This document shows, in pieces, positions 24,229 through 58,438 of a DNA stretch of 64,000 nt. The stretch comes from Mauremys mutica (Eukaryota; Chordata; Testudines; Geoemydidae): the NCBI RefSeq assembly GCF_020497125.1, contig NC_059082.1, forward strand, positions 49,746,524-49,810,523, in the 5' to 3' direction. The position numbers and the translations under genes were made by a program. The first letter of the stretch is position 1; each line of letters begins with the position of its first letter. The notes below the pieces were generated by a model. It searched no databases and was not told where the DNA came from. It saw only the letters and a list, made by a program, of their open reading frames with translations.

Positions 24229-24440
24229 AAAAGACGGTTACTCACCTGTAGTAACTGTTGTTCTTCGAGATGTGTTGCTCCTATCCATTCCAGTTAGGTG
24301 TGCGCGCCGCGCGTGCACGGCATCTCGGAACTTTTTTACCCTAGCAACCCCGGCGGGCCGGCTGGGTGCCCCCTGGAGTGGCGCCGCTATGGCGCTGAAT
24401 ATATACCCCAGCCGGCCCGTCTGCTCCTCAGTTCCTTCTT
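24229..24440 (-). repeat. DIRS copy 1, 3' inverted terminal repeat
   Basis: Inverse of 30209-30387 over about 180 bp, from AAGAAGGAACTGAGGAGC inward to the CTCCTATCCATTCCAG block, plus about 32 extra outer bases (AAAAGACGGTTACTCACC). The longer 3' repeat is what a DIRS internal complementary region requires. It includes the same TATATA core as the 5' repeat. Confidence 0.9.
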
Positions 24441-24475
24441 GCCGGCTACTCCGACAGTGGGGAAGGAGGGCGGGT

Positions 24476-24579
24476 CTGGAATGGATAGGAGCAACACATC
24501 TCGAAGAACAACAGTTACTACAGGTGAGTAACCGTCTTTTCTTCTTCGAGTGATTGCTCCTATCCATTCCAGTTAGGTG
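24476..24579 (-). repeat. DIRS copy 1, internal complementary region
   Basis: Its plus-strand sequence equals the outer end of the 3' repeat (ending ACCGTCTTTT at 24540) directly followed by the outer start of the 5' repeat (CTTCTTCGAG at 24541). It therefore records a head-to-tail junction of the element's ends. I see no mismatch against either end over the stretch I compared. Confidence 0.9.
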
Positions 24580-24594
24580 ATTCCCAAGCCTTAC

Positions 24595-25665
24595 CTAGGC
24601 GGTGGGGTCGGAGTGAGACGTGGCGGAGTGTAATACCGCGGAGCCGAAGGCTGCATCGTCTCGAGACTGTTGCACCAACGCGTAGTGGGAGGCGAAGGTG
24701 TGGACCAAAGACCAGGTGGCCGCTCGACAGATGTCCTGGATCGGAACATGGGCCAGGAAGGCAGCCGACGAGGCGTGCGCCCTCGTCGAGTGGGCGGTGA
24801 GTCGGCACAGGGGGACGCGAGCAAGCTCGTAGCAGGTCCGAATGCATGCTGTAACCCATGAGGAAATCCGCTGGGAGGATATCGGCTCGCCTTTCATGCG
24901 GTCAGCCACCGCTACGAAGAGCTGGGGCGAACGCCGGAAGGACTTAGTCCGCTCGATGTAGAAAGCGAGCGCCCTGCGGACGTCAAGGGTATGCAGCTGC
25001 TGCTCCCGAGGCAAGGCGTGCGGCTTTGGGAAGAACACCGGGAGGAAGATCTCCTGGTTGAGATGGAACGCTGACACTACCTTCGGGAGGAAGGCCGGAT
25101 GAGGGCGAAGCTGCACCTTGTCCCCATGGAAGACGGTGTATGGCGGGCTAACCGTCAGGGCGTGGAGCTCAGAAACTCGTCTTGCTGATGTAATGGCGAC
25201 GAGGAAGGCCGTCTTCCAGGAGAGGTAGAGCAAGGAGCACGTGGCCAAGGGCTCGAAGGGGGGACCCATCAGCTTGGCCAGCACAAGGTTCAAATCCCAG
25301 GTCGGGGTAGGACGCCGCACCGGCGGGTACAAGCGGTCCAGGCCTTTGAGAAAGCGGGAAACCATCTGGTTCGAGAAGATGGACCGACCTTCTACGGATG
25401 GACGAAAAGCGGACACTGCCGCCAGGTGAACTCTCAAGGAGGAGACCGCAAGACCTTGCTCCTTAAGGTACCAGAGGTAGTCCAGGATGGTAGGGACCGG
25501 GACTACAAATGGATTGAGACCTCGTTCATCACACCAGAGTGCGAATCTCTTCCATTTCGCTAGGTAAGTGGAGCGAGTGGAAGGCTTCCGGCTCTCAAGT
25601 AGGACCTGCTGGACTGCTGCAGAACAGCCCCTCTCCGCGCGGGTCAACCACTCAGGTACCAAGCT
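24595..25665 (-). CDS. DIRS tyrosine recombinase, copy 1
   Basis: Integrates the circular DNA copy by strand exchange through a 3'-phosphotyrosine. Visible motifs in order: an N-terminal SAM-like region (RKPSTRSTYLAKWKRFALWC), catalytic Arg in SARRVSEL, the HSTR box (His-x-x-Arg) and the ATWSLVHTFASHY end, whose last residue is the presumed nucleophile (Tyr codon 24682-24684). All expected catalytic positions are present and there is no stop. The domain has no obvious ATG of its own. Its frame stays open upstream to an ATG at 27129, giving 844 codons that overlap RT in another frame. How translation starts is not visible. The domain of about 356 residues is a normal length. Confidence 0.85.
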   Translation of the reverse strand, partial: SLVPEWLTRAERGCSAAVQQVLLESRKPSTRSTYLAKWKRFALWCDERGLNPFVVPVPTILDYLWYLKEQGLAVSSLRVHLAAVSAFRPSVEGRSIFSNQMVSRFLKGLDRLYPPVRRPTPTWDLNLVLAKLMGPPFEPLATCSLLYLSWKTAFLVAITSARRVSELHALTVSPPYTVFHGDKVQLRPHPAFLPKVVSAFHLNQEIFLPVFFPKPHALPREQQLHTLDVRRALAFYIERTKSFRRSPQLFVAVADRMKGEPISSQRISSWVTACIRTCYELARVPLCRLTAHSTRAHASSAAFLAHVPIQDICRAATWSLVHTFASHYALVQQSRDDAAFGSAVLHSATSHSDPTA

Positions 25666-27773
25666 GTGAGATGGAGGGACTGCAGGTTCGGATGGCGGAG
25701 TCTGCCGAAGTCCTGAGTGATGAGGTCCGGCCACAACGGAAGGGGGATGGGTTCCCGAACGGAGAGCTCGAGGAGCAGGGTGAACCAGTGCTGCCTCGGC
25801 CAGGCCGGCGCTACGAGTATGACGGTGGCCCTGTCCCTCCGAAGCTTCAGGAGCACTCGGTGCACGAGCGGGAACGGAGGGAAGGCATAGAGGAGGCGTT
25901 CCGTCCAGGGGTAAAGGAAGGCGTCTGACAGGGAGCCTGGCGAGCGACCCTAGTATGAGCAAAACAGGCGGCACCTCCTGTTCTCCCTGGAGGCGAATAG
26001 GTCTACTTGGAGAAATCCCCACCTCCGGAAGAGTGTGTGGACGACATCTGGACGGAGGGACCACTCGTGGGAGAGGAACGACCTGCTGAGATGGTCGGCC
26101 AGCGTGTTCTGCACTCCCGGAAGAAAGGACGCTTCCAGGTGAATGGAGTGGGTCACGCAGAAGTCCCACAGGAGCATCGCCTCCTTGCAGAGGAGGGAGG
26201 ATCGGGCTCCGCCCTGTTTGTTTACGTAGAACATTGCTGTTGTATTGTCCGTGAACACTGTTACACAGCGGCCTTGCAGGCGAGCGCAGAAGGTGCGACA
26301 GGCCAGACGTATCGCTCGCAGCTCGTGGACATTGATGTGCAGGGCGAGCTCCTGCGGCGACCACAGACCTTGGGTGTGAAGATCGCCCAGGTGAGCTCCC
26401 CAACCGAGCGCTGAGGCATCCGTAGTCAGAGTAGCGGATGGGCGAGGAGGGTGGAACGGGACTCCCGCACACACGACCTCCGGGTCGAGCCACCAGCGGA
26501 GGGACTCGAGGGTCGTCCTGGTGACCGTGACCACCATGTCGATGGGGTCTCGATGAGGCCGGTACACCGACGCGAGCCGAGACTGGAACGGGAGGAGGTG
26601 GAGCCGTGCGTACGCTGTGACATATGTGCACGAAGCCATGTGGCCCAGGAGGCGGAGGCAGGAGCGCACCGTCATGGTTGGGAAGGTGACGAGGTCCCGG
26701 ATGATGGAGACCATCGTCTGGTGTCGAGCGCGAGGGAGACAGGCCCTGGCCACCGTGGAGTCGAGGACCGCTCCGATGAACTCCACTCGCTGTGCCGGGA
26801 TCAATGTGGACTTCTCGGCGTTGATGAGAAGACCAACTCGCTGAAAGAGAGCCAGGATTTCTGCCATCTGGTCCAATACGAGTTGTCGGGACTGACCTCG
26901 AACCAGCCAGTCGTCGAGATATGGGTAGACGTGTATCTGACGACGTCAGAGGGCTGCGGCCACTACCGCCATACATTTGGTAAATACCCTCGGGGCGGTG
27001 GAGAGACCAAACAGCAACACCGCGAACTGGTAGTGGGTGTTGTTCACCACAAACCGGAGGTAACGACGATGGGGAGGATAGATTGCGACATGGAAGTAGG
27101 CATCCTTCATGTCGAGGGCGGCAAACCAATCTCCCGGATCCAGAGAGGGAATGATGGTCCCCAAGGTGACCATGCGAAACTTGGGCTTGAGCAGGTATTT
27201 GTTCAGCTCGCGAAGGTCCAGGATAGGACGTAGCCCCCCTTTCGCTTTGGGGATGAGAAAATAACGGGAATAGAATCCCCTGCCCCGCCTGTCTTGAGGC
27301 ACTGCTTCTATGGCACCCACGCTCAACAGAGTGTGAACCTCTTGTAGGAGGACTTGCTCATGAGAGGGGTCCCTGAAGAGGGACAGGGAGGGTGGGTGGG
27401 AAGGAGGGGGCGAAACAAATTGCAGGCGGTATCCCGACTGGACCGTTTGAAGCACCCAGTTGTCTGATGTTACTTGGGACCACGCCGAAAAGAAATGGGA
27501 AAGGCGATTGTAAAATAACGGGGAAGGACCCGGTAGGGAGAGTGATGGGCCGTCCTCGAGCGTCCCATCAAAAGGCCTGCTTGGCCCCCTGAGGGGCCTT
27601 GGACGAGGCCTGGCCCTGGTTACGGCGGTTGCCTGAAGGACGACGGCGATTTTGGGCCGGTCGCCGGCTATTGTATGGCCGATATCGGGACTGATAGACG
27701 GGTCGGGAGGGCTGCTGACGGAAGGACCTGCACTGCGTCGCCGGCGTGTGCATGCCGAGAGTACGTATCGCAA
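25644..27773 (-). pseudogene. DIRS reverse transcriptase/RNase H, copy 1, two stops
   Basis: Copies element RNA into DNA. The frame overlaps the 3' end of gag by about 200 bp in another register. RT motifs: RPILDLRELNKYLL, WFAALDMKDAYFHV, FGLSTAPRVFTKCM and YLDD (catalytic aspartates). RNase H follows, with TTDASALGWGAHL, NVHELRAI, FTDNTTAMFYVNKQGG and NTLADHLSRS. A C-terminal extension contains VDLFASRENRRC and APAWPRQHWF; in DIRS proteins this zone is sometimes called methyltransferase-like, which I cannot confirm. TGA at 26946-26948 replaces an Arg codon of copy 2 and TAG at 25950-25952 replaces its Gln codon. Both fit C-to-T change. The rest of the frame is open, so inactivation looks recent. 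Confidence 0.88.
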
Positions 27774-30024
27774 TACGGCCGTCCTTCAAAGTTTGGATTC
27801 GAGAATCCGTCTTTTCAGAGAAAAGACCCTTTGTGTCAAAGGGTAGGTCTTGTAACGTGTATTGGACCTCCGGCGGCAGGGTGGAAGACTGCAGCCAAGC
27901 GATGCGCCGCATCGTCAAGCCGGAGGCCAAGATCCTGGCACCTGAGTCCGCAGCGTCGAGGGCGGCCGTGATGGAGGATCTAGACGACCTCCTTCCCTCC
28001 TCCAACATTGCTGCGAACTCCTGCCGGGAGGCTGTTGGCAGGAGCTCCGTAAATTTCGCCAGGGACGTCAGGATATCGAAGACGTACCTGGCGAGGAGGA
28101 CCATCTGATTGGCTATCCGCATTTGCAGACCGCCAGCGGAATAGACCTTACGGCCTAGCAGGTCCATACGCCGCGCGTCCTTAGATTTGGGCGCAGGGGC
28201 AGGCTGGCCGTGCCTCTCCCTATCATTGACCGATTGGACGACCAAGGAGTCCGGGGTCGGGTGCGTGTACAGGTATTCATAGCCCGTGGGAGGGACAGAG
28301 TATTTGCGTTCAACCCCACGGGCCGTAGGAGGTACGGATGCAGGCGTCTGCCAGAGAGTGGTGGCATTCTTTTGCACTGTCCGCACGAAAGGCAGTGCAA
28401 CTTGCACTGGCACCTCTGCCCCGACTACATTTGTGATGGGGTCCTCGTCCTCCTGTACCTCCGCTATCGGCAGAGCCATAGCCGTCGCCACGCGGTGAAG
28501 GAGGTCTTGGTGTGCTTTTAAGTCTATGGGCGGAGGCTCCTTCGTCGACGCTCCGGCCACCGCTTCATCAGGCGAGGACGAGGAGGACAAGCCCTGGATC
28601 ACCGGCTCCGAAGAGGGATCTGCCGCGTGCTCGGCGGGGGGGTCGGGCTGCGCGTGCCCCTGGGGTTCAGGTGGTATAGCGTCCGCAGCAGGCGGTGAAG
28701 GGGCCGGTCGGCTGACCGTCGCCTCTGGAACCCTGCGCTTGGACGCGAGGGGTCTTGGGGGGGAGGGCACCCCCTGCGCCTCATACTGGGCCCATGGAAC
28801 CCAGAAGCCCCATGGCTGTGCCCCTTGAGGATGGCCCTGCGGGGTGGGTGGCAGGAGTCCGTAGCCCTCCGTCCCAGAAGCGACTGACGCAGGACGGGAT
28901 GGCCAGGGAGGTGCCGAGGCGCTGACGGAATGCGCTGCGGAGTGAGGTAGTCCATCCCCGGATGGCAGCGAAGAGCGATGTTGGTCCGTTCGGTACCGGG
29001 ACGGCGACCGGGGGTGACGTCCGTCACGGTGCCGGGAGCTCGACCGGTGCCGGGAGCTCGACCGGGATTGAGACCTCCAGTGCCGGGAGCGCCCGCGCGA
29101 GTCGCGGTGCCGGGAACGGTGCCGGGACGGCGACCTCTGGCGGTGCCGACGCGATGGCGACCTGGACCTCGTGCGGCGCCGGGAGTACGACCGGTACCGC
29201 GATGACGAGCGGTACCGGGACTGCGACCGACGTTTCGACGGCAATCGGTACCGCGATGGCGAGCGGTGCCGAGATCGTGATCGACGGGACGGAGATCTGC
29301 CACGGGACCGGGAACGTGATCGGGACCGGGTGTGCCGTCCATGTCGACTGTCCAGCGAGGGCAGCCGGGTCATTCTGGCCGGCTTTCCCGCCGACACGAC
29401 AGCCCACACCGGCGGCGCCGGGGGCCGGAGGCTCGGTGCCTCTATGAGCCGAATCAGCTCACGCGCCTCAGAGAATGTCTCCGGCGTCGAAGGCAGCCGG
29501 GGCTCAACCACGGACGGTACCGGGAAGCGTGGCGGCGCCGGACTCGACGGGCCTTGCGGCGCCGGAGTCAAAGGTCCAGTGCACGGCTTGTGCACGGTCA
29601 CCGCGGGGGCCGCAAGTAGCGCAACCGCTTTCGCCGAGTCCTCAGCGCGAGCCTGCGCCAGTGCCTTCGCCAGTCTATGTTTTTTCGAAGGCGAAAGCGA
29701 GCGGTGCCGAGACTTCGTAGCCGCTTTCTGAGGCTTCGGTGCCGCGGAGCCGGAGCGGCTCGGTGCCGCCGGTGCGCTCTGTACCGAGGAAGCTCGCGGT
29801 GCCGGCGCGGACGGTGCCGGTGGCTGAAGCGACGCTTCCATCAAGAGCTGCTTCAAGCGGATATCCCGCTCTTTTCGAGTCCGCGGTTTAAATGTAGAAC
29901 AGAGCGAACACTTATCTGTTCTATGCCCTTCGCCCAGGCAACGGAGGCAGGCGTCGTGCGGGTCTCCGACGGGCATAGGCCTCTGGCACTCAGCGCAGGG
30001 CTTAAAGCCCGGTGCTTTGGGCAT
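27568..30024 (-). CDS. DIRS Gag-like protein, copy 1 (intact)
   Basis: Predicted 818 residues, started at the ATG 30022-30024 because copy 2 begins at the equivalent ATG; an upstream in-frame ATG at 30084 adds 20 unconserved residues. Domains: residues 10-42 carry Cys-rich zinc sites including a CX2CX4HX4C knuckle (CLRCLGEGHRTDKC). Pro/Ala-rich linker follows. Residues about 231-352 are a dense Arg/Ser domain with RSRSRSR, SRYRS and SRHRS words. Then come an acidic segment and a globular C-terminal half (about 540-790) with DLLGRKVYSAGGLQMRIANQ and LPFDTKGLFSEKTDSRIQTL. That half belongs to the DIRS1-gag type known as the source of the LAP2-alpha C-terminal domain in mammals. Presumed role: binding and packaging element RNA. 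No stop or frameshift. Confidence 0.85.
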   Translation of the reverse strand: MPKAPGFKPCAECQRPMPVGDPHDACLRCLGEGHRTDKCSLCSTFKPRTRKERDIRLKQLLMEASLQPPAPSAPAPRASSVQSAPAAPSRSGSAAPKPQKAATKSRHRSLSPSKKHRLAKALAQARAEDSAKAVALLAAPAVTVHKPCTGPLTPAPQGPSSPAPPRFPVPSVVEPRLPSTPETFSEARELIRLIEAPSLRPPAPPVWAVVSAGKPARMTRLPSLDSRHGRHTRSRSRSRSRGRSPSRRSRSRHRSPSRYRLPSKRRSQSRYRSSSRYRSYSRRRTRSRSPSRRHRQRSPSRHRSRHRDSRGRSRHWRSQSRSSSRHRSSSRHRDGRHPRSPSRYRTDQHRSSLPSGDGLPHSAAHSVSASAPPWPSRPASVASGTEGYGLLPPTPQGHPQGAQPWGFWVPWAQYEAQGVPSPPRPLASKRRVPEATVSRPAPSPPAADAIPPEPQGHAQPDPPAEHAADPSSEPVIQGLSSSSSPDEAVAGASTKEPPPIDLKAHQDLLHRVATAMALPIAEVQEDEDPITNVVGAEVPVQVALPFVRTVQKNATTLWQTPASVPPTARGVERKYSVPPTGYEYLYTHPTPDSLVVQSVNDRERHGQPAPAPKSKDARRMDLLGRKVYSAGGLQMRIANQMVLLARYVFDILTSLAKFTELLPTASRQEFAAMLEEGRRSSRSSITAALDAADSGARILASGLTMRRIAWLQSSTLPPEVQYTLQDLPFDTKGLFSEKTDSRIQTLKDGRIAIRTLGMHTPATQCRSFRQQPSRPVYQSRYRPYNSRRPAQNRRRPSGNRRNQGQASSKAPQGAKQAF
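28968..29334 (-). repeat. RS-coding CpG-dense repeat inside gag, copy 1
   Basis: The DNA encoding the Arg/Ser domain is built from short words such as CGGTACCG, CGGTGCCG and CGGGACCG. It is very CpG-rich and internally repetitive, with many near-palindromes. On the opposite strand it opens spurious Asp/Arg-rich and Gly/Ala/Thr-rich frames, which I reject as genes. Confidence 0.7.
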
Positions 30025-30208
30025 GAGCCCGCACCGGGTGAGGCAAAAGGGGAAACCCCCCCCTTTTACCTTATCTATTAACACTAACTATCTAACTAAC
30101 TAACTGTAAAACTAATCACTAAACTAACTATATACAAACAACAAGCGAGAGCTAGGGTTGTGGAGGACAAAGAGCATTCCACAGTTCCAACTGGCCGTCA
30201 CGGGCGGT

Positions 30209-30387
30209 AAGAAGGAACTGAGGAGCAGACGGGCCGGCTGGGGTATATATTCAGCGCCATAGCGGCGCCACTCCAGGGGGCGCCCAGCCGGCCCGCCGGG
30301 GTTGCTAGGGTAAAAAAGTTCCGAGATGCCGTGCACGCGCGGCGTGCACACCTAACTGGAATGGATAGGAGCAATCACTCGAAGAAG
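30209..30387 (-). repeat. DIRS copy 1, 5' inverted terminal repeat
   Basis: About 180 bp, inverse of 24229-24440. It starts (element sense) CTTCTTCGAGTGATTGCTCC and ends CTCAGTTCCTTCTT. It differs from the 3' repeat in its outermost bases, as in other DIRS elements where the two ends are not identical. Confidence 0.9.
30244..30250 (-). promoter_or_regulatory. TATA motif of DIRS copy 1
   Basis: ATATATACCCC in element sense lies about 220 bp upstream of the gag ATG, after a GC-rich hairpin-like GGCGCCGCTATGGCGC. Position and conservation in copy 2 suggest the core promoter. Transcription start is not shown by sequence. Confidence 0.55.
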
Positions 30388-31121
30388 AACACTGAGGTTC
30401 TCATAGCTGCCTGGAGGCGAAGCTAAAGATTCAGATCTTTGAAAATTGGCTTAGAAGTCTGGAGGGTAGGAAAATATGTCTTCAATGGGTGGAGAAGGGC
30501 ATACTCTCTGCGGCAGGCAATCATCCCTTGTTCCCTGATGGGATGATCTGTAGGAAGCTCGGGGAGTCCCTTTGCCTATCTATTGGGTTTTCCTGCAGGG
30601 TGGGGTTTGGACGGGGGGCCATGATTTAGCCCCTACATTTAAGAATAATCTCCACTATTTGCCTCCCATATTTCTGATAAGAAGTCTCACAAGAGCATGA
30701 AAAAGGCATGCTTTTCTTGTCTCAAAAATCATGTACTCCATGCAACATGCAATAGACAAACACTGGAGGATTGTTAATAAGGCTACAAATGTAATTCAAA
30801 GTCCTCAGCTGCAGGTGCTTCACTTTCTTCACTACATCTAGCATGGGGTCATAACTCCATGATGGAACCTCAAAGCTTCCAGAAACCTGTGTGACGTTTC
30901 AACACCTAAATAAGTACTTTGATTTTCAAAAGGGCTGAGCACTCAGCAGCTCCACTGACTTTTAAAAATTGTGCCAGCATATGCCTGTCCTGAAGCCAGA
31001 GAATTGAGAGCTCCTGTAATTTAGGAATATGGAATTAGGAGCCTAATGTTAGGCATTTCTTTTTGCAAATCTTGGCAATAGACAAATCAAGGGACTATAG
31101 ATGGATGGATGAACTGAAGAA

Positions 31122-35683: not shown

Positions 35684-37110
35684 ATAGACTCATAGAAGAT
35701 TAGGATTGGAAGAGACCTCAGGAGGTCATCTAGTGCATCCCCCTGCTCAAAGCAGGATGAATACTAACTAAATCATCCCAGCCAGGGTTTTGTCAATCCG
35801 GGCCTTAAAAACCTCTAAGGATGGAGATTCCACCACCTCCCTAGGTAACCCATCCCAGTGCTTCACCATCCTCCTAGTGAAATAGTGTTTCCTAATATCC
35901 AACCTAGACCCCCCCACCACTGCAACTTGAGATCTTTGCTCCTTGTTCTGTCATCTGTCACCACTGAGAACAGCCTAGCTCCATCCTCTTTGGAACCTCC
36001 CTTCAGGTAGTTGAAGGCTGCTATTAAATCCCCCGTCACTCTTCTCTTCTGCAGACTAAACAATCCCAGTTCCCTCAGCCTCTTCTCGTAAGGCATGTGC
36101 CCCAGCCCCCTGATCATTTTTGTTGCCCTCCGCTGGACTCTCTCCAATTTGTCCACATCCTTTCTGTAGTGGGGGGCCCAAAACTGGACACAGTACTCCA
36201 GATGTGGTCTCCTTTGACCCAATCCTCCAATTTGTCTAGTTCACTCTGGACCCTATCCCTAACCTCCAACATATCTACCTCTCCCCCAAGATTAGTGTAA
36301 TCTGTGAACTTCCTGAGGGTACAATCCATCCCGTTGTCCAGATCATTAATAAAGATACTGAACAAAACTGGCCCCAGGACCGACCCATGGGGCACTCCGC
36401 TTGATATCAGCTACCAACTAGACATTGAGCTGTTGATCACTACCCGAGGAACCCAACAATCTAGCCAGCTTTCTTATAGTCCATTCATCCAATCCATACC
36501 TTTTTAACTTGCTGGCAAGAATACCGTGGGGGACCATATCAAAAGCTTTGCTGAAGTCCAGCTATATCACATCCATTGCTTTCCCCATATCCACAGAGCC
36601 AGTTATCTCATCATAGCAGGCAATCAGGTTGGTCAGGCATGACTTGCCCTTGGTGAATCCATGTTGACTGTTCCTGATCACCGTCCTCTCCTCCAAGTGC
36701 TTCAAAATGGTTTCCTTGAGGACCTGCTCCACGATTTTTCCTGGGACTGAGATGAAGCTGACTGATCTGGTTTCCTGGGTTGTTGTTCTTCCCTTTTTAA
36801 AAGATGGGCACTATATTTGCCTTTTTCCAATTGCCCGGGACCTCCCCCGATCACCATGAGTTTACAAAGATAATGGACAATAGCTCTACAATCACATCAG
36901 CCAATTCCCTCAGCACCTTCGGATGCATTAGATCTGGAACCATGGACTTGTGCATGTCCAGCTTTTCTAAATAGTCCTTAACCTGTACTTTTACCACTGA
37001 GAGCTACTCACCTCCTTCCCATACTGTGTTGCCTAGGACAGCAGTATCGGAGCTGACTTTGTCTGTGAAGACCGAGGCAAAAAAAGCATTGAGTACTTCA
37101 GCTTTTTCCA
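35684..37110 (-). mobile_element. Older CR1, 3' half (split by the younger CR1)
   Basis: Minus-strand CR1 ORF2 remains, from the region just before RT through the C-terminal end. The 36114-36395 frame has VLGPVLFSIFINDLDNGMD and the 35863-36222 frame has [20 protein letters not shown] plus [14 protein letters not shown]. At 37110 the sequence opens with a piece reading KAEVLNAFFASVFTDK in translation. That piece continues the ORF2 segment found beyond 41097, so both are one element. Multiple frameshifts and stops mark it as old. Confidence 0.88.
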
Positions 37111-40100
37111 AATCATAGAATCATAGAATTCAAGATCAGAAGGGACCATTATGATCATCTAGTCTGACCTCCTGCAAAATGCAGGCCACATAAGCCGATC
37201 CACCCACTCCTGAACTAATTTTCTCCCTTGACTCTGCTGTTGAACGCTCCAAATCATGATTTAAAGACTTCAAGTAGCAGATAAACCACCAGCAAGCGAC
37301 CCCTGCCCCATGCTTCGGAGGAAGGCGAAAAACCTCCAGGGCCACTGCCAATCTACCCTGGAGGAAAATTCCTTCCCGACCCCAAATATGGCGATCAGCT
37401 GAACCCCGAGCATGCGGGCAAGACTCTCCAGCCAGACCCTCTGGAAAAGGCTAACAATATCCCAACATTGACCCTTTGTACTAATTACCAGTGTGGCACG
37501 TTATTGACCTATTGACTAAACCCGTTATCCTATCATACCATCCCCTCCATAAACTTATCCAGCTTAATCTTAAAGTCATGGAGGTCCTTCGCCCCCACTG
37601 TTTCCCTCGGTAGGCTGTTCCAGAATTGCACTCCTCTGATGGTTAGAAACCTTCATCTAATTTCAAGCCTAAATTTCCTGACTGACAATTTATATCCATT
37701 TGTCCTCGTGTCCACATTAGCACTGAGCTGAAATAATTCCTCTCCTTCCCTGGTATTTATCCCTCTGATATATTTAAAGAGTGCAATCATATCTCCTCTT
37801 ATCCTTCTTTTGGTTAAGGAAAACAAACCGAGCTCCTCAAGTCTCCTTTCATACGACAGGCTTTCCATTCCTCGGATCATTCTAGTGGCCCTTCTTTGTA
37901 CCCGTTCCAGTTTGAATTCATCCTTCTTAAACATGGGAGACCAAAACTGCACACAATACTCCAAATGAGGTCTCACCAATGCCTTATATAACGGGACTAG
38001 CACCTCCTTATCTCTACTAGAAATACCTCATCTAATGCATCCCAAGACCACATTAGCTTTTTTAACGGCTACATCACATTGCCTACTCATAGTCATCCTA
38101 CGATCAACCAGGACTCCTAGGTCCTTCTCCTCCTCCGTTACTTCCAACTGGTGCATCCCCAGCTTATAACTAAAATTCTTGTTAGTCATCCCTAAATGCA
38201 TAACCTTACACTTCTCATAATTGAATTTCATCCTGTTACTAATACTCCAGTTTACAAGGTCATCCAAATCTCCCTAGAGGATATCCCGATCCTTTTCCGA
38301 ATTGGCAATACCTCCCAACTTGGTGTCATCCGCAAACTTTATCAGCCCACTCCTACTTTTGGTTCCGAGGTCAGCGATAAATAGATTAAATAAGATCGGA
38401 CCCAAAACCGAACCTTGAGGAACTCCACTGGTAACCCCCCTCCAACCCGACAGATCACCCTTCAATACGACCCTCTGCAGTCTCCCCTTTAACCAGCTCC
38501 TTATCCACCTCTGGATTTTCATTTCGATCCCCATCTTTTCCAATTTAACCAGTAATTCCTCATGCGGTACCGTATCAAACGCCTTACTGAAATCTAGATA
38601 TATTAGATCCACCGCATTTCCCTTGTCTAAAAAATCTGTTACTTTCTCAAAGAAGGAGATCAGGTTGGTTTGGCACGATCTACCTTTCGTAAAACCATGC
38701 TGTAATTTGTCCCAGTTGCCATCGGCCTCAAGGTCCGTAACCACTCTCTCCTTTAAAAATTTTTCCATGACTTTACATACTACAGATGTTAAACTAACAG
38801 GCCTGTAGTTACCTGGGTCACTTTTTTTCCCCTTCTTGAATATAGGAACTATATTAGCTAATCTCCAGTCAAACGGTACAAGCCCCGAGTTTAGAGATTT
38901 ATTAAAAATCATCGCTAACGGGCTTGCAATTTCACTTGCCAATTCCCTTAATATTCTAGGATGAAGATTATCCGGGCCCCCCGATTTACTTCCGTTAAGC
39001 TGTTCAAGTTTGGCTTCTACCTCAGATACCGTAATGTCTACCCCCATATCGTCATTCCCATCAGTCCCTCTACCACTATTCCTTAGCCCTTCATTAGCCT
39101 CATTAAAGACCGAGGCAAAATATTCATTTAGATATTGTGCCATGCCAAGATTATCCCTAATCTCCACTCCGTTTAAAGTTTTAAGCGGTCCCACTTCTTC
39201 CTTCTTGGTTTTCTTCCTATTTATATGGCTAAAAAACCTTTTGCTATTGGTTTTAATCCCCTTCGCTAGGTCCATCTCCACCCGGCTCTTTGCCTTTCTC
39301 ACTGCTTCCCTACACCCTCTGACCTCAATAAGGTAGGTTTCTTTGCTGATCCCTCCCATCTTTCACTCCTTGTACGCTTTCTGTTTTTTCTTAATCACCC
39401 CTCTGAGACGCTTGCTCATCCAGCTCGGTCTAAAACTGCTACCTACGAACTGTTTTCCCTTTCTCGGGATACAGGCCTCTGACAGCTCCTGCAACTTCAA
39501 CCTGAAGTAACCCCAGGCGTCTTCCGCCTTTAGATCCCTAAATATGTTAGTCCAATCCACTTCCCTAACTAGTCACCTTAATTTAGTAAAGTTAGCCCTT
39601 TTGAAATCGTAAACCTTAGTCTCAGATGCAATTTTGTTTATCCTTCCATTTATTTTGAAACGAATTAGCTCATGATCACTCGAGGCAAGGTTGTCCCCTA
39701 CAACTATTTCCTCAACAAGGTCCTCGTTACTCACCAAAATCAGATCTAAAATGGCATCCCCCCTCATCGGTTCAGCAACTATTTGATGAAGGAATTCATC
39801 AGCTATCACGTCTAGGAAAAGCTGAGCCCTATTATTATTACTAGCATTTGTTCCCCAATCTATATCCGGGAAGTTAAAATCTCCCATGATCATACAGTTC
39901 CTATTAGTATTTACCTCCTTAAAAACATTAAAGAGCTCTCTATCCATATCCAGGCTAGATCCCGGCGGTCTATAGCACACCCCAATCACTATCCCAGGGG
40001 ACGCTCTAGTAGTTTTCTTCCCCAATGTGATCATTGCCCAAACGGATTTCCGTATTATCCATTGCATTGCTAGTTATTTCGTTACATTTCACCTCATTAT

Positions 40101-41096
40101 TGACATACAATGCTACTCCCCCACCTTTACCTTTGTTTCGATCTTTCCTAAACAGCACATACCCTTCCATACCTGTACTCCAGTCATGGCTACTGTTCCA
40201 CCATGTTTCGGTTATTCCTACGATATCCGGTTTCAATTCTCAGACCAGGAGCTCTAGTTCCTCCATTTTGTTACCTAAGCTTCTCGCATTGGTGAACAAA
40301 CATCCTAATTTTTGCTGTTTGGCTCCTCTCACCCTTTTCACCCAACTTGGTAGGGACACAGTACTACCAGTATGACCTGTCGGTCTAGTATCTGTCCCCC
40401 CCCTTTTCCTTATACCTAACCCTCCCCCTCTGTCTATATCTGTTGTTATCCTGTTGTTCTCACTCTCAATGTATACATTTGGCGTGGAGAGTACCTGGAC
40501 CTCTCCCAACCGTCTCCCCCCAATGTCTAGTTTAAAGCTCTTTTAATCAGATGACCTAGCCTCCCTCCTAGAATTCTACTTCCTTCCCTACTTAGGTGGA
40601 GCCCATCCCGTGAGAACAGTTCTCTGTCCCCGAAAGCCTCCCAGTGTCCATACATCCCAAAGCCCTCCTTGTAACACCACTCCCTCAGCCAACTATTTAT
40701 CGTCACGATCTTGTCACCCCTTTGGCGCCCTTCCCTAGGGACAGGTAGAATCCCACTGAAGATCACCTGAGCCTCAATTTCCTTGAGCATCTTACCCAAC
40801 CTGGCATAGTCTCCCTTGATCCTCTCTAGCGAGAATCTAGCCGTGTCATTCGTTCCTACATGAAGGATGATCAACGGGTTCTTACCTGCTCCTCTTAGGA
40901 TCCTTTTCAACCTCAGGTCCACATCCCGTATTTTAGCGCCCGGTAGACAGCACACCCTTCTGTTCTCCGGATCGGCCCTGGTCACAGGCCTGTCCAACCT
41001 TCGCAGTATGGAATCCCCAATCAGATAGACCTGCCTTTGCCTGGGGACAATGTGGTCCTCTAACCTATCCTCCGTCCCCCCTGGTTGCAAGCTCCT
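37111..41096 (-). mobile_element. Younger CR1, nearly full length, nested in the older CR1
   Basis: A 3986-bp CR1 on the minus strand, flanked by TGGA (plus-strand TCCA at 37107-37110 and 41097-41100), a likely 4-bp target duplication. Its tail reads GAATTCTATGATTCTATGAT in element sense. It holds the SGNH-esterase part of ORF1, then endonuclease, RT and the C-terminal end of ORF2. The 5' end lies inside ORF1, so it is mildly 5'-truncated. Confidence 0.9.
37530..40509 (-). pseudogene. CR1 ORF2 (endonuclease/RT) of the younger element, decayed
   Basis: ORF2 nicks target DNA and copies the RNA there. Endonuclease motifs: LFTNARSLGNKMEELELLV, KPDIVGITETWW, GKGGGVALYV, GVCYRPPG, MGDFNFPDIDW, SSDHELI. 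RT motifs: [68 protein letters not shown] and FADDTKLG (catalytic Asp pair present). In-frame stops lie at 40240, 39573, 39363, 38274, 38028 and 37653. Five are TGA and one TAG, mostly where Arg or Gln is expected. One frameshift falls near 40030-40067. Otherwise the frame is continuous, so decay is moderate. Confidence 0.9.
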
Positions 41097-41222: not shown

Positions 41223-41366
41223 CTCTAGTTATGTTTTGGCCTTCCTGTTTACACCCCTGCATGCTTGAGCAATATTTTTATACTCCTCCTTAGTCATCTG
41301 TCCAAGTTTCAACTTCTTGTAAGCTTCCTTTTTGTGTTTAAGGTCACTGAAGATTTCACTGTTAAG

Positions 41367-50908: not shown

Positions 50909-51444
50909 AGAGCACTTGAAAGGTTTTTAGCCTTCCTCTGACCAGGGAGTGATGGATCCTTGAGCAACACGAACCCACACATTATACATCCCTCATGGGA
51001 CTGCAGGCCTTTGCTCAGGTGTCAGGAGAGCACTACACCAGGATGGCCAACATTTTCCAGCACAGGGGCCTAGAATTGGGCAGTTGAGGCCCAAACAGCA
51101 GAGGCTTGATTTTCAAAGGTGCCAAGTACCCCGAGCTCCCACTGAGTTCAGAGGGGACTTGTGTGTGCTCAGCATTGTGTGTTACACTGAAGAAGCTCCT
51201 GTAGTCCTGGTGCCAGACATACACCCATGTGACTCCACTTGCCTTCTCCTTCAGTGAAAGGATCATGAGAGGGGATGGATGAGCTGCCAGGGAATAAGCA
51301 CAGCTAAAGAACGATGCCAACGCTCTTAACATTTTCATTTTTCAGCGCCTAGCTCATCCCAGCATGGCTCCAAGAGAGGATCTCACACTTGCCTGTGAAT
51401 ATTGACTGATGCTGGACATGGGTGGGTGTGCATGTATTAGTATT
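50909..51444. other. No recognised feature
   Basis: Spacer between solo LTR B and DIRS copy 2. Nothing recognised. Confidence 0.45.
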
Positions 51445-51625
51445 CTTCTTCGAGTGATTGCTCCTATGCATTCCAGTTAGGTGTGCGCGCACCGCGTGCA
51501 CGCTCGTCGGAAGATTTTTTTACCCTAGCAACACTCGGTGGGTCGGCTGGGCGCCCCCTGGAGTGGCGCCGCTATAGCGCTAGATATATACCCCAGCCGA
51601 CCCGTCCGCTCCTCAGTTCCTTCTT
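51445..51625 (+). repeat. DIRS copy 2, 5' inverted terminal repeat
   Basis: About 181 bp, inverse of 58226-58438 with scattered differences. It carries CCTATGCATTCCAG where copy 1 has CCTATCCATTCCAG. Confidence 0.9.
51584..51590 (+). promoter_or_regulatory. TATA motif of DIRS copy 2
   Basis: ATATATACCCC at 51584, about 240 bp upstream of the gag ATG and at the same place as in copy 1. The inverted 3' repeat carries the same motif pointing inward. Confidence 0.55.
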
Positions 51626-51829
51626 ACCGCCCGTGACGGTCGTTGGAACAGTGGAGTGCTTAGCTGACCTCCACAGCCCTAGCTTCTCACTGCTTTTCTT
51701 CTCATACTTGTTGTATATAGTTCTTTAAAAATAGTTAGATTAGTTTAAATAGTTTGTTGTACTTAGTGTTAGTTAGTTAGGGGAAATCGGGGGGCCTAGC
51801 CCTTCTTTTTCCCATCCCGGTGCGGGCTC

Positions 51830-54209
51830 ATGCCCAAGGCACCGGGATTTAAGCCGTGCTCGGCCTGCCAGCGGCCCATGCCGATTGGAGACCCTCACGA
51901 CTCCTGCCTGCAGTGCTTAGGAGAGTCTCATCTTACAGATAAGTGCCGCATTTGCAAGTCCTTTAAGCCAAGGACAAAGAAGGAGCGGGACTTTCGCTTG
52001 AAGCAGCTCCTGATGGAATCGGCACTTAGCCCTGCGGTGCCGACACCAGCCACTCCACAGACCTCTTCGGTGCGGAGTGCTCCAGCGGTTCCTGGCCGTT
52101 CCGGTACCGAGGCCATGAAGAAGCAGCAGCCGGCACCGGCACCCTGGCACCGTTCCCTCTCTCCCTCGAGGAAACGTAAGCCAGCGCAGACGTCCTCCAA
52201 GGTCTCTGCACCAGGACCTCTCGCCCAACCACCGGCACCGGCGCCCCAGGCACCGACTCCGACAGCGCATAAACCGTGCGCTGTACAGTTGACTCCGGCG
52301 CCGCAAGGGCCGTCGAGTCTGGTACCTCCTTGCTCCCCGGTGCATACCGCGGTCAAGCTCGCTCTCCCGTCGACACCTGAAACCTTTTCGATGGCGAGAG
52401 AACTCATTGCGTTGACGGAGCCAACGCATACTCAACCCCCAGTCAGCGGGCAAGCCGGCTATCATGCGGCCTCCTTCCCCTGACAGACAGGAGAGACGGT
52501 ACTCCAGGTCCCGGCCCCGATCCCGGAGACGTTCGCGTTCACGCTGCTCCAGATCTTGGCACCGCTCGCAGTCCCGGTACCGCTCTCCATCGCGGTACCG
52601 GTCGTACTCGCGGAGACGATCCCGGTCCCGCTCTCCTGACCGGCGCTATCGGCACCGATCCAGCTCTCGGTACCGTTCCCGGTACCGGTCCTCCCGCAGC
52701 CGCTCCCACCGTCGGGACTCGAGATCCCGGTCGACCTCCCGGCACCGACACGGTAGACGGTCCCGGTCTCATTCCCGGCACCGCGAAGACCGGCACCGTT
52801 CCCCGGCACCGTCCAGGGACAGACCGGCGTCGTCGACCGCGCAGTCGCACAGTCTCTCCGCCCCGCCGTGGCCTTCGAGACAGCCGTCCGTCTCCTCTCT
52901 GGCAGACAGCGCAGTTGATCAGCGCACCGAGCCTCAAGGGCAAGACCAGGGTCCTCCTCAATGGGGCTTCTGGACTCCATGGGCCTACCATGAGACTCAA
53001 GGAGTGCCCTTTTCCACTCAGCGCTCCAGGACAGCCGATCACAGGGCGCCTGAGGCTACGGTCAGCAGACCTCCTCCCACAGCCGTGGTAGAGGAGCCGC
53101 TGACATCCACGGATGCGGAGCATCCCCCTGTCGCTGAGGCCCCGCAGCAGCTCGATGAACCCCCGCCAGACACGCTGCTCCCGGGCCTGTCATCCTCTTC
53201 ATCACCGGATGAGGCCGTGGCTGGGGCGTCCTCCTCGGGCCCTCCTCCGATCGACCTTCGGGCCCATCAGGACTTGTTACGACAGGTGGCCCAAAACATA
53301 AACCTGCCAGTTGAGGAGGTGGCAGAGGACGATGACCCCATCGTCAGCATAATTGGAGCAGATGCGCCTCTTCGTGTGGCCCTGCCCTTCATCCGCACAA
53401 TCCAGCGGAATGCGGACACTGTCTGGCAGTCACCAGCTTCCATCCCTCCCACCGCTCGGGGGGGTGGAAAGAAAATACTCGGTCCCATCTAAGGGATACG
53501 AGTATCTCTACACGCACCCAGCTCCATGCTCATTGGTGGTCCAGTCGGTTAACGACCGTGAGCGACATGGCCAGCCAGCGCCAGCGCCCAAATCCAAAGA
53601 AGCAAGGCGTATGGACCTTTTGGGCCATAAGGTCTATTCAGCCGGTGGCCTCCAGTTGAGAGTCGCCAACCAGCTGGCTCTCCTCAGCAGGTACACCTAT
53701 AACACCTTGGTGTCCCTCTCGAAGTTCTCTGAGCTTGTGCCATCCGACTCCCGGCCTGAGTTCATGGCCCTTGTTGAGGAGGGTAAGAAGGCGTCCCGGT
53801 CGGCCCTCCAAGCCTCTCTGGACTCTGCAGATTCGGGAGCCAGGACTTTGGCCTCTGGAGTGACCATGAGGAGAATTTCGTGGCTTCAGGCCTCCACGCT
53901 GCCGCCGGAGGTCCAGCACACCATCCAGGACTTGCCGTTTGATGGCCTGGGTCTCTTTTCTGAAAAGACAGACTCACGGCTGCAGACCCTCAAGGATGGT
54001 CGAATCACAATACGCTCCCTGGGCATGCACACGCCCGCTACCCAGCGGAGATCCTTCTGGCCACAGCCGTACCGCCCGTTCAACAGCCCAGACCGCGCCC
54101 CGATAATAGGCGCAGGGGCAGAGTGAACTGGCGCAGGCAGTCGGGCAATCAGGGAAACCAGTCCCAACCGCCCTCGAAGCCTTCCTCAGGACCCAAGCAA
54201 AACTTTTGA
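51830..54209 (+). pseudogene. DIRS Gag-like protein, copy 2, three frameshifts
   Basis: Starts at ATG 51830 (PKAPGFKPCSAC). It has the same N-terminal zinc pattern with knuckle CLQCLGESHLTDKC, a Pro/Ala linker, an Arg/Ser domain at about 52464-52820 (SRYRSPSRYRS) and the LAP2-alpha-like half (DLLGHKVYSAGGLQLRVANQ and LPFDGLGLFSEKTDSRLQTL). Frame is lost near 52447, near 53462 in a G-run, and near 54085. Between these points the frames are fully open (51830-52483, 52464-53492, 53353-54126). The stop matching that of copy 1 is at 54207. Confidence 0.88.
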
Positions 54210-56101
54210 TGGGACGCCCGAGGATGGCCCACCACTTTCTTTACCGGATCCTTCCCCGTTGTTTTTCAACCGTCTTTCCCACTTCCTACCGGCATGGTCC
54301 CAGATAACAACAGACAACTGGGTACTTCGCACGGTGGAGTCTGGTTACCGCCTCCAGTTTGTTTCGCCCCCTCCCTCCCACCCACCCTACCCGTCCCTCT
54401 TCAGGGACCCCTCTCACGAGCAATTCCTCTTGCAAGAGGTCGAGACTCTGTTGAGTTTGGGTGCCATAGAGGAGGTGCCGATATTTCCTAATCCCCAAGG
54501 CGAAGGGAGGTCTGCGACCAATCTTCGACCTCCGAGAGCTCAACAGATTTCTGGTCAAGCTCAAGTTTCGCATGGTAACCCTGGGGACCATTATTCCCTC
54601 CCTGGATCCGGGAGACTGGTTTGCCGCCCTCGACATGAAGGACGCGTATTTCCATATTACGATTTACCCTCCTCATCGACGCTACCTGCGCTTTGTCGTC
54701 AACCACCAGCACTACCAGTTTACGGTGCTCCCCTTCGGCCTCTCCACGGCACCGAGGGTCTTCACCAAGTGCATGGCAGTGGTCGCCGCGGCCCTTCGCC
54801 ATCGCCGGATACATGTTTACCCGTATCTCGACGACTGGCTGGTCCGCGGAACGTCCCAGCAGCTCGTAGCACAGCAAATGGCCGAGATCCTAGGCCTGTT
54901 TCAACACCTAGGCCTTATGATCAACGCTGAGAAGTCTACCTTGACTCCAACACAGAGGATAGAATTCATCGGCGCGGTCCTGGACTCCAGTCTAGCCAGA
55001 GCCTGCCTCCCACTGCCTCGACACCAGGCCATGGCTTCCATCACCCGAAGCCTGCAGTCCTTCCCGACGACAACGGTGCGCACCTGCCTCAGCCTCCTAG
55101 GCCACATGGCAGCGTGCACTTTCGTGACCCCATACGCGAAGCTCCACCTTCGCACCTTTCAAACGTGGTTGGCGTCTGTTTACCGCCCGCACAGGGACTC
55201 CATAGACACGGTGGTCACGATCCCGCCGTCAGTCCTCGTCTCGCTCAACTGGTGGTTGGACCCAGGGGCGGTGTGTGCCGGGGTTCCGTTCCGCCCCCCT
55301 CACCCCTCCATCACTTTAACTACGGACGCCTCGGCCATGGGGTGGGGTGCGCACCTCGGCAGCCTACACACCCAGGGCCTTTGGTCACCCCGCGAGCTGA
55401 CCCTCCATATCAACGTCAGGGAACTGCGAGCGGTTCACTTGGCATGCCAGACTTTTCGCTCCCAACTTCAAGGTCGCTGCGTGTCTGTCCTCACTGACAA
55501 CACGACAGCGATGTTCTACATCAACAAGCAGGGCGGAGCACATTCCTCCCGGCTTTGCACGGAAGCGATGCAACTGTGGGACTTTTGCATAGCCCACTCC
55601 ATACACATAGTGGCATCGTTTCTCCCGGGAGTGCAGAACACACTGGCAGACCGCCTCAGCAGGTCTTTCCTCTCCCACGAGTGGTCGCTTCGTCCCGATG
55701 TGGTGCACACAATTTTCCAGAGGTGGGGTTTTCCCCGGATAGACCTTTTTGCCTCCAGAGAGAACAGGAAATGCCATCTGTTCTGCTCTTACCAGGGCGG
55801 CTCCCAGGGCTCCCTCTCGGATTCATTCCTCCTCCCCTGGAAGGATCGCCTACTGTATGCCTTCCCTCTGTTCCCCCTCGTACACCGGGTGCTGCTCAAG
55901 CTCCGGAGGGACAGGGCCCGCCTCATTCTCATTGCTCCGGCGTGGCCGAGACAGCACTGGTACACCCTGCTGTTCGACCTCTCAGTAGCGGATCCTATTC
56001 CCCTCCCGCTATGGCCGGACCTCATAATGCAGGACTTCGGCAGGCTTCGCCACCCGGACCTGCAGTCCCTCCACCTGACGGCTTGGCTCCTGCATGGCTA
56101 A
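54205..56101 (+). pseudogene. DIRS reverse transcriptase/RNase H, copy 2, frameshifted
   Basis: The first part (54205 to about 54480) matches the N-terminal RT region (FNRLSHFLPAWSQ, GAIEEVP). A net loss of 32 bp near 54478 relative to copy 1 removes about 11 residues and shifts frame. The rest is one open frame from 54572 to 56101: WFAALDMKDAYFHI, FGLSTAPRVFTKCM, YLDDWLV, then RNase H with TTDASAMGWGAHL, NVRELRAVHLA, LTDNTTAMFYINKQGG, NTLADRLSRS, and the extension with APAWPRQHWY. The Arg and Gln codons that became stops in the other copy are intact here. Confidence 0.88.
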
Positions 56102-58072
56102 CCCGAGCAGAGCGGGACTGTTCCGCTGCAGTGCAGCAGGTGCTGCTAGAGAGCAGAAAGCCTTCCACTCAGTCGACCTACCTCGCTAAGTGGAAGCGTT
56201 TCGCGCTCTGGTGCAATCACAAAGGTCTCAACCCTCTCCTGATACCTATTCCCAGGATCCTGGACTATCTTTGGTCCCTCAACGAGCAAGGCCTCGCAAT
56301 CTCCTCCTTGAAAGTGCACTTGGCGGCAATATCCGCCTTTAGGCCCAGCATAGGGGAACGTTCCATCTTCTCCAATCACATGGTTTCCCGTTTTCTAATG
56401 GGGCTAGAACGATTATACCCTCCGGTACGACGCCCAACTCCTACCTGGGATTTGAACTTGGTCTTAGCCAAGCTTATGGGAGCCCCCTTTGAGCCCTTGG
56501 CCACGTGTTCCCTTCTCTACTTGTCCTGGAAAACGGCCTTCCTCGTCGCAATTACTTCGGCGCGACGGGTCTCTGAGCTTCGTGCCCTAACGGCTGACCC
56601 GCCGTATACTATCTTCCATAAGGACAAAGTGCAGCTTCGGCCACACCCCGCCTTCCTACCTAAGGTGGTGTCGGCTTTCCATGTGAACCAGGACATCTTC
56701 CTCCCGGTCTTCTTCCCGAAGCCGCACACATCTCGTAGGGAGCAGCAGCTTCATAGCCTCGACGTGCGTAGGGCCCTCGCTTTTTACATCGAGCGAACGA
56801 AGCCTTTCCGCCGTTCGCCTCAGCTCTTTGTGGTGGTAGCAGATCGCATGAAGGGCATGCCAGTCTCTTCCCAGCGGATTTCGGCCTGGGTGACGTCATG
56901 TATCAAGACATGCTACGAGCTCGCTCACGTTCCAGCTGGTCATCTCTCCGCTCACTCTACAAGAGCTCAAGCCTCTTCTGCTGCCTTCCTGGCCCATGTC
57001 CCCATTCAGGACATCTGTCGGGCGGCGACCTGGTCTGGAGGATGGTGTGGACTGCACCCTTAGCAAGTTTGCAGATGACACTAAACTGGGAGGAGTGGTT
57101 GATACGCTGGAGGGTAGGGATAGGATACAGAGGGACCTAGACAAATTAGAGGATTGGGCCAAAAGAAATATGATGAGGTTCAACGAGGACAAGTGCAGAG
57201 TCCTGCACTTAGGACGGAAGAATCCCATGCACTGCTACAGACTAGGGACCGAATGGCTGGGCAGCAGTTCTGCAGAAAAGGACCTAGGGGTTACGGTGGA
57301 CGAAAAGCTGAATATGAGTCAGTGTGCCCTTGTTGCCAAGAAGGCTAATGGCATTTTGGGTTGTATAAGTAGGGGCATTTCCAGCAGATCAAGGGATGTG
57401 ATCATTCCCCTCTACTCAGCACTGGTGAGGCCTCATTTGGAGTACTGTGCCCAGTTTTGGGCCCCACATTACAAGAAGGATGTGGATAAATTGGAGAGAG
57501 TCCAGCGGAGGGCAACAAAAATGATTAGGGGGCTGGAGCACATGACTTATGAGGAGAGGCTGAGGGAACTGGGATTGTTTAGTCTGCAGAAGAGAAGAAT
57601 GAGGGGGGATTTGATAGCTGCTTTCAACTACCTGAAAGGGGGTTCCAAAGAGGATGGATCTAGACTGTTCTCAGTGGTAGAAGATGACAGAACAAGGAGT
57701 AATGGTCTCAAGTTGCAGAGGGGGAGGTTTAGGTTGGATATTAGGAAAAACTTTTTCACTAGTAGGGTGGTGAAGAACTGGAATGGGTTACCTAGGGAGG
57801 TAGTGGAATTTTTTTTTTTTTTAGAGGTTTTTAAGGTCAGGCTTGACAAAGCCCTGGCTGGGATAATTTAGTTGGGTTTGGTCCTGCTTTGAGCAGGGGG
57901 TTGGACTAGATGACCTCCTGAGGTCCCTTCCAACCCTGAGATTCTATGATTCTATGATTCCGTTCACACCCTTGCTGCCCACTACGCATTGGTGCAACAG
58001 TCCAGAGACGATGCAGCCTTTGGCTCAGCAGTCTTACACTCTGCCACGTCTCACTCCGACCCCACCGCCTAG
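56086..58072 (+). pseudogene. DIRS tyrosine recombinase, copy 2, split by CR1
   Basis: The frame (open from 55555 in the same register) shows RKPSTQSTYLAKWKRFALWC, SARRVSEL (catalytic Arg), HSTR box in [10 protein letters not shown] and ATWS, then runs into a CR1 at 57037 and stops at 57063. The last segment, with the nucleophile Tyr (codon 57983-57985, in AAHYALVQQ), lies beyond the CR1 at 57961 and ends at TAG 58070-58072. The insertion therefore separates the nucleophile from the rest of the enzyme. No other stop is seen in the coding parts. Confidence 0.9.
57037..57960 (+). mobile_element. CR1 inserted in the DIRS recombinase
   Basis: A 5'-truncated CR1 of 924 bp begins inside ORF2 ([17 protein letters not shown]) and ends with GATTCTATGATTCTATGATT. 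The ORF2 C-terminal frame stays open from its first base to the stop at 57869-57871, including [20 protein letters not shown] and [19 protein letters not shown], so the insertion looks fairly recent. A run of about 15 T at 57808 encodes FFFF where relatives have other residues. No target duplication is clear. Confidence 0.93.
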
Positions 58073-58087
58073 GTAAGGCTTGGGAAT

Positions 58088-58190
58088 CACCTAACTGGAA
58101 TGCATAGGAGCAATCACTCGAAGAAGAAAAGACGGTTACTCACTGTTGTAACTGTTGTTCTTCGAGACGTGTTGCTCCTATCCATTCCAG
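58088..58190 (+). repeat. DIRS copy 2, internal complementary region
   Basis: Inverse of the joined ends of this copy, with the join at 58126/58127. The half matching the 5' end carries CTGGAATGCATAGG, the same G-to-C-type variant that this copy's 5' end has. The half matching the 3' end has a few mismatches (CGAGACG versus CGAGATG). Confidence 0.9.
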
Positions 58191-58225
58191 ACCCACCCTC
58201 CTTCCCCACTGTCGGAGTAGCTGGC

Positions 58226-58438
58226 AAGAAGGAACTGAGGAGCGGACGGGTCGGCTGGGGTATATATCTAGCGCTATAGCGGTGCCACTCCAGGGGGCAC
58301 CCAGCCGACCCACCAAGTGTTGCTAGGGTAAAAAAATCTTCCGATGAGTGTGCACGCGGCGTGTGCACACCTAACTGGAATGGATAGGAGCAACACATCT
58401 CGAAGAACAACAGTTACAATGGTGAGTAACCGTCTTTT
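58226..58438 (+). repeat. DIRS copy 2, 3' inverted terminal repeat
   Basis: Inverse of 51445-51625 plus about 32 outer bases ending GTGAGTAACCGTCTTTT. It ends the element at 58438. Confidence 0.9.

What the first reader, a model, noticed from the sequence alone, without database searches (positions are those of the whole stretch)
24229..30387. Structurally complete DIRS-like element with two intact frames
Inverted repeats, internal complementary region, 818-residue gag and a recombinase with all catalytic residues are preserved. Only RT is broken, by two stops. Such a copy could be mobilised in trans if an active relative exists, and it suggests recent activity of DIRS elements in this lineage.
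Basis: partly seen in the sequence, partly recalled or inferred. Interest (0 to 1): 0.8.

Follow-up and report, generated by a model that had tools for sequence, protein, structure and literature searches.

The report
Young turtle DIRS retrotransposon copy
This is one copy of a DIRS retrotransposon, a jumping gene that inserts with a phage-like recombinase; its reverse transcriptase is broken, but close relatives without broken genes occur in the same turtle genome, so the family was active recently, which is notable but ordinary for this kind of element.

Summary
Window 24229-30389 (minus strand) is a complete DIRS1-like element with inverted terminal repeats, a perfect internal complementary region, an 818-residue gag, a recombinase with its catalytic residues, and an RT-RNaseH frame with two stops. 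The host is a turtle, probably Mauremys mutica.

Twenty further copies were fetched, those best matching its 3' end. All 20 are full length, about 92-97.5% identical, and 5 of 20 show no counted stop or frameshift. This copy carries 0.51% private substitutions, so it is young.

Trans-mobilisation is not supported: 40 of 43 distinct lesions are private, while 136 of 299 synonymous variants are shared. Copies seem to arise from intact templates.

Unlooked-for: insertion at a two-base TT core with purine at -1 (36 of 41) and pyrimidine at +2 (37 of 40), replicated on new junctions. Gag appears to be exchanged as a cassette between subfamilies. A second, older DIRS copy lies at 51443-58438.

New member of a known kind.

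The parts
24229..30389 (-). complete DIRS1-like element, copy 1 (6161 nt); coding strand is minus
30205..30389 (-). 5' terminal repeat (window right end)
   Evidence: inverted match to 24275-24444, 3 mismatches in 170 nt
24229..24444 (-). 3' terminal repeat (window left end)
24476..24579 (-). internal complementary region; its two halves overlap by the 2-base circular junction
   Evidence: 65 of 65 and 41 of 41 nt complementary to the two ends; exact junction sequence in 21 of 22 copies
27571..30024 (-). gag, 818 aa, open; zinc-knuckle-like N-terminus (read by eye), Ser-Arg-rich middle, conserved C-terminal part
25647..27785 (-). RT-RNaseH-methyltransferase-like frame, broken by two stops
26946..26948 (-). 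first in-frame stop, just upstream of the YLDD catalytic box
   Evidence: also in 1 of 20 relatives
25950..25952 (-). second in-frame stop, in the methyltransferase-like region
   Evidence: in 0 of 20 relatives
24598..25758 (-). tyrosine recombinase, C-terminal 387 aa, open; R193 K226 H323 R326 W349 Y359 in the numbering of this piece; its true start was not determined
51443..58438 (+). second DIRS copy (copy 2), older, of another subfamily, opposite orientation
57037..57961 (+). LINE-like insert (CR1 type, name recalled) interrupting the recombinase frame of copy 2
   Evidence: weak RVT_1 match below the curated cut-off; related copies at 10979-11876 and 35684-36211

Best explanation
The locus is a young, RT-defective insertion of a DIRS1-like retrotransposon family that multiplied recently in a turtle. 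Shown: the anatomy, many close relatives, the unbroken state of several, the mostly private nature of lesions, and the insertion-site motif. Inferred from the established DIRS model: the element RNA is reverse-transcribed, the ends are completed and closed into a circle on the internal complementary region, and the recombinase recombines the circle's TT junction with a TT in the chromosome, in the context R-TT-N-Y, leaving no target duplication. Also inferred: copies arise from intact templates, so the proteins act mainly on the RNA that encoded them or only a few intact masters are copied. This copy is an end product that decayed after insertion.
For: Anatomy. 20 of 20 fetched relatives full length; main alignments 92.7-97.5% identical, one copy in two pieces of 94.2 and 92.4%. 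5 of 20 without a counted lesion, 2 of these 5 with an uncounted stop at codon 10 of the RT frame. Private substitutions of copy 1: 23 of 4492 sites, 0.51%; tip lengths 0.86% (RT+recombinase) and 0.48% (gag). Complementary-region clock: 0 changes in copy 1, 18 in 21 copies, mean 0.40% per site. pN/pS 0.39-0.70 for variants seen once against 0.03-0.28 for variants seen in 2 or more copies. Lesions shared 3 of 43 against synonymous variants shared 136 of 299, Fisher p 2.5e-7. TT at both ends in 22 of 22 copies; purine at -1 in 19 of 22 and 17 of 19 new, pyrimidine at +2 in 22 of 22 and 15 of 18 new.
Against: The 20 full copies were the best matches to this copy's 3' end, so they lean to the young and intact. 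In a second sample chosen on the 5' end, usable recombinase sequence was found in only 7 of 14. A few master copies could give private lesions without cis-preference. One shared stop sits in two copies on neighbouring branches. No transcript or polymorphism data were available. No empty site was seen, so the TT overlap is inferred from the junctions and the complementary region.
Confidence: 0.88

Rival explanations
1. Broken copies such as this one are mobilised in trans by intact relatives, so the two stops do not end its career.
For: Unbroken relatives exist; the cis sequences of copy 1 are perfect; one shared stop lies in two copies on neighbouring branches.
Against: Lesions are mostly private: 3 of 43 recur, at hot-spot codons. 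One of copy 1's stops is in 0 of 20 relatives.
Confidence: 0.1
2. The family is old and looks young only through gene conversion between copies.
For: Between copy 1 and copy 2 the ends are far more alike than the interior.
Against: Single-copy synonymous divergence is even along the element and of the same order as the complementary-region clock. The 22 copies examined all have different flanks.
Confidence: 0.05
3. The element is domesticated host sequence rather than a mobile element.
For: DIRS gag has been domesticated elsewhere (LAP2alpha, PMC4495291, passages); gag and recombinase are open here.
Against: Dispersed copies with precise ends; the RT frame is broken. Copy 1's private changes, 15 amino-acid-changing and 8 silent, are too few to show or exclude selection.
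Confidence: 0.01

Closest known systems
DIRS1-like retrotransposons (PMC3266345, passages seen), including the Anolis and Xenopus elements AcDIRS and XtDIRS
   Same: gag, RT-RNaseH(-MT) and recombinase, inverted terminal repeats, two complementary regions overlapping at a circular junction, no target duplication, ends of the form NTT
   Different: Only TT is common to the circle and the targets here. The base before it is T in the circle but purine in 36 of 41 targets, which departs from the 3-base identity of the published model.
DIRS elements of the painted turtle with LAP2alpha-like gag (PMC4495291, passages seen)
   Same: turtle host; 4 of 8 aligned gag relatives match the LAP2alpha profile
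   Different: This gag has no Pfam match of its own, and the seven relatives aligned with it are at most 65% identical.
DIRS families of Xenopus with putatively functional copies (PMC9210276, passages seen)
   Same: several full-length unbroken copies in a vertebrate genome
   Different: different host and family

Membership tests
DIRS1-like | inverted terminal repeats | tested here: met
DIRS1-like | internal complementary region matching both ends and overlapping at the circular junction | tested here: met
   65 of 65 and 41 of 41 nt, 2-base overlap
DIRS1-like | gag, RT-RNaseH and tyrosine recombinase | tested here: met
   RT-RNaseH relatives by way of copy 2
DIRS1-like | methyltransferase-like domain after RNaseH | tested here: inconclusive
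   Pfam finds none in the 101-aa piece, but the stretch is conserved with copy 2 (81% aa, dN/dS 0.16); the domain name is from PMC3266345 and recall
DIRS1-like | recombinase catalytic residues | tested here: met
   R193, K226, H323, W349, Y359 invariant and R326 nearly so in 13 sequences; the roles are recalled; Pfam matches to the integrase domains are below the cut-offs
DIRS1-like | integration without target site duplication | tested here: met
   22 of 22 copies: no duplication beyond the shared TT; empty sites not available
DIRS1-like | ends of the form NTT (23 of 28 elements in PMC3266345) | tested here: met
   TT preceded by a flanking base at the 5' end in 22 of 22
3-base-junction integration model, as told in PMC3266345 (a mechanism, not a membership criterion) | 3-base circular junction identical to the target | tested here: not met
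   only TT is common; the -1 base is purine in 36 of 41 targets, T in the circle
Ngaro or PAT elements | split direct repeats | tested here: not met
   terminal repeats are inverted; apart from the short gag repeats and one 20-nt two-copy match, the only direct pair is terminal repeat against complementary region

The most novel reading that the evidence does not exclude
In this vertebrate DIRS family integration follows a two-base TT core in the asymmetric context R-TT-N-Y instead of a 3-base identity. Copying is essentially restricted to intact templates (cis-preference). New subfamilies form by swapping a whole gag cassette, between the terminal repeat and the RT, onto a common RT-recombinase backbone.
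Probability: 0.5. Interest if true: 0.5.

Novelty: new member of a known kind. Interest (0 to 1): 0.35.

Why it matters
DIRS elements are little studied among retrotransposons, and their integration model rests on few insertion sites (recalled). A family with many young, precisely delimited copies lets three open points be measured from sequence alone: what the recombinase requires of its target, whether proteins act in cis, and how new subfamilies form. The complementary region against the element ends also serves as a built-in clock, like LTR pairs in LTR elements.

Tried and rejected
Palindromic target. The inferred target of copy 1 has 6-base inverted arms around AAA. Over 22 sites no pair of flanking positions covaries convincingly; the lowest of 74 tests has p = 0.007, as chance would give. 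Rejected as a rule; only the purine and pyrimidine preference remains.

Recombinase less often broken than gag. In the first 20 copies the recombinase had 2 lesions against 29 in gag and 15 in RT (where two frameshifts in the gag/RT overlap count twice). That sample was chosen on the 3' end, which covers the recombinase. In 14 copies chosen on the 5' end, the recombinase had 4 lesions in the 7 usable copies. Gag, over an equal length, had 5 in 9 once one truncated copy (L084) was dropped; the script's own total of 41 in 10 includes that copy. Rejected as a sampling effect.

Inherited lesions. Three stop positions occur in two copies each, one of them in copy 1. All three are at codons that contain CpG in 15 to 18 of 20 copies. 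None unites sister copies, but L009 and L010 share one while copy 1, which groups with L010, lacks it; descent followed by loss or recombination is not excluded. No frameshift is shared at an exact position; sharing was scored by exact position, and the near coincidences differ in kind or length. My first count (46 events, 44 distinct) was corrected for double counting to 44 events and 42 distinct, 43 with copy 1; the p-value moved from 1.3e-7 to 2.5e-7.

Copy count. 5711 (3' probe) and 3977 (5' probe) are first-look candidates, not confirmed copies.

Rfam on the whole window: no match at the gathering thresholds.

Searches of the held library for turtle DIRS, complementary regions, Mauremys, target sites and cis-preference listed no title on this family or on the target motif. 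Most subscription journals are not held, and of papers not cited I saw only listings.

Full report
What is there. The stretch 24229-30389 is a complete DIRS1-like retrotransposon, read on the minus strand. Its terminal repeats are inverted (170 nt with 3 mismatches). The internal complementary region 24476-24579 pairs without a mismatch with both outer ends, 65 and 41 nt, the halves overlapping by two bases. Gag is open over 818 codons. The RT-RNaseH-methyltransferase-like frame, 27785-25647, has two in-frame stops. The first lies just before the YLDD box, so a product ending there lacks the catalytic aspartates. The recombinase frame is open; in an alignment with 12 relatives R193, K226, H323, W349 and Y359 are invariant and R326 nearly so. 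Pfam recognises RT, and RNaseH and the recombinase only below the curated cut-offs. Gag itself has no Pfam match, but 4 of the 8 aligned gag proteins match LAP2alpha, a relation published for turtle DIRS (PMC4495291, passages).

Host. Of 17 gag relatives found, 15 are from turtles, the best 14 among them, and 2 from a newt. The window lies in a 2.48-Gb genome of 595 contigs. One contig, C9, is 106,458,794 bases long, exactly the contig length given for a Mauremys mutica protein (P0053). I infer that the host is Mauremys mutica. The assembly differs in size from the 2.23-Gb one in PMC9098631 (passages).

Second copy. A second DIRS element lies at 51443-58438 on the other strand. It is of another subfamily. 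Nucleotide identity to copy 1 is 73-78% in the longer interior blocks and 91% over the last 480 nt. dN/dS between the two is 0.04-0.17, with dS 0.57-3.2 by segment. Its gag is spread over three frames, its RT has a deletion near 54470, and a LINE-like insert of about 925 bp cuts its recombinase. The low dN/dS indicates that both lineages evolved mostly as working elements before these copies were inserted. A search of the genome for this subfamily did not complete.

Copies in the genome. A 1200-nt probe from the 3' end gave 40 scored matches, copy 1 among them, all 95-100% identical. All 20 are full length; main alignments are 92.7-97.5% identical to copy 1, one copy aligning in two pieces of 94.2 and 92.4%. 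Five of 20 have no counted stop or frameshift in any frame; gag is open in 6, RT in 11 and the recombinase in 18 of 20. A stop at codon 10 of the RT frame in 4 copies, inside the gag overlap, was not counted; 2 of the 5 have it. The recombinase figure is inflated by the choice of probe, as a second sample shows. In that sample of 14 copies chosen on the 5' end, only 7 had usable recombinase sequence at the expected distance, so not every copy in the genome is full length.

Age. Copy 1 differs from all 20 others at 23 of 4492 compared sites (0.51%; the middle of gag was left out). Its tip is 0.86% long in the RT+recombinase tree and 0.48% in the gag tree. The complementary region gives an independent clock: 0 changes in copy 1 (95% upper limit 1.4%) and 18 over 21 copies, 0.40% per site. 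At 0.5-1e-9 substitutions per site and year, a turtle rate recalled and not taken from a call, 0.48-0.86% is roughly 5-17 million years.

Are broken copies copied? The 20 relatives carry 44 lesion events, 42 distinct; with copy 1 there are 43 distinct, of which 3 occur in two copies. All three are at codons containing CpG in 15-18 of 20 copies, and none unites sister copies, although one pair lies on neighbouring branches. By contrast 136 of 299 synonymous variants in RT and recombinase are shared (Fisher p 2.5e-7). With the internal share of the RT+recombinase tree at 0.229, three or fewer of 43 has probability 0.006, and none 1.4e-5. Variants seen once have pN/pS 0.39-0.70, shared ones 0.03-0.28. 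The simplest reading is that templates were intact and copies decay after insertion: cis-preference, or a few intact masters.

Insertion sites. All 22 copies, copy 2 included, have TT at both ends. The complementary region, which templates the circle junction, has room for one TT only; that exact junction sequence is present in 21 of 22 copies. So one TT is inferred to come from the target. In the first 22 sites the base before TT is a purine in 19 and the second base after it a pyrimidine in 22. In new junctions the figures are 17 of 19 and 15 of 18. These came from the other 19 three-prime ends and from 20 of 23 further five-prime ends; one of each (L047, L054) lacked the exact end motif and was left out. 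TT sites in the window outside the two elements have 41% purine and 54% pyrimidine at these places; p = 1.8e-5 and 1.9e-5 for -1, 1.4e-6 and 0.01 for +2. The published model speaks of a 3-base junction identical to the target (PMC3266345, passages); here only two bases are common, since the circle has T before TT. One of the sampled insertions seems to sit in the end of another DIRS copy.

Gag cassettes. Five of the 20 relatives have gag 88-91% identical to copy 1, while their RT and recombinase are 95-98% identical. For the four of them profiled against copy 1, identity rises at the gag/RT border, and the first 200 nt are again 97-98% identical; single 200-nt bins of RT still fall to 90%. Synonymous variants shared by 2-3 copies number 0.55 per site in the C-terminal and 0.36 in the N-terminal gag piece, against 0.15 in RT and 0.11 in the recombinase, whereas single-copy ones are even (0.20-0.25) (p = 4e-12). 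This fits recombination that joins different gag cassettes to one backbone. Faster mutation of gag is unlikely, because single-copy variants show no excess there.

Verdict. A real, young, RT-defective copy of a recently active DIRS family in a turtle: a new member of a known kind. No transcript evidence was available.

Noticed in passing
51443-58438: A second DIRS copy of another subfamily, in opposite orientation, interrupted by a LINE-like insert; its last 480 nt and its ends are far more like copy 1 than its interior is.
   Followed up: partly
10979-11876, 35684-36211, 57037-57961: Three copies of one LINE-like repeat (83-87% identical), one inside the second DIRS element.
   Followed up: partly
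132-817 and 1247-2043: Two GC-rich minisatellite arrays with units of 49 and 43 bases and higher-order periods of 93 and 214.
   Followed up: no
L064 and L068 (G000:C3:900774-901500): A DIRS 5' end joined to the last 32 nt of another DIRS copy in opposite orientation, at a site fitting the target motif: apparently a DIRS inserted in a DIRS end.
   Followed up: partly
36001-42000: Strong GC skew, -0.25 to -0.36 over 6 kb.
   Followed up: no
28500-29700 (gag): Gag carries a long Ser-Arg-rich region; public annotation names several turtle relatives serine/arginine repetitive matrix proteins, which are probably DIRS gag proteins.
   Followed up: no
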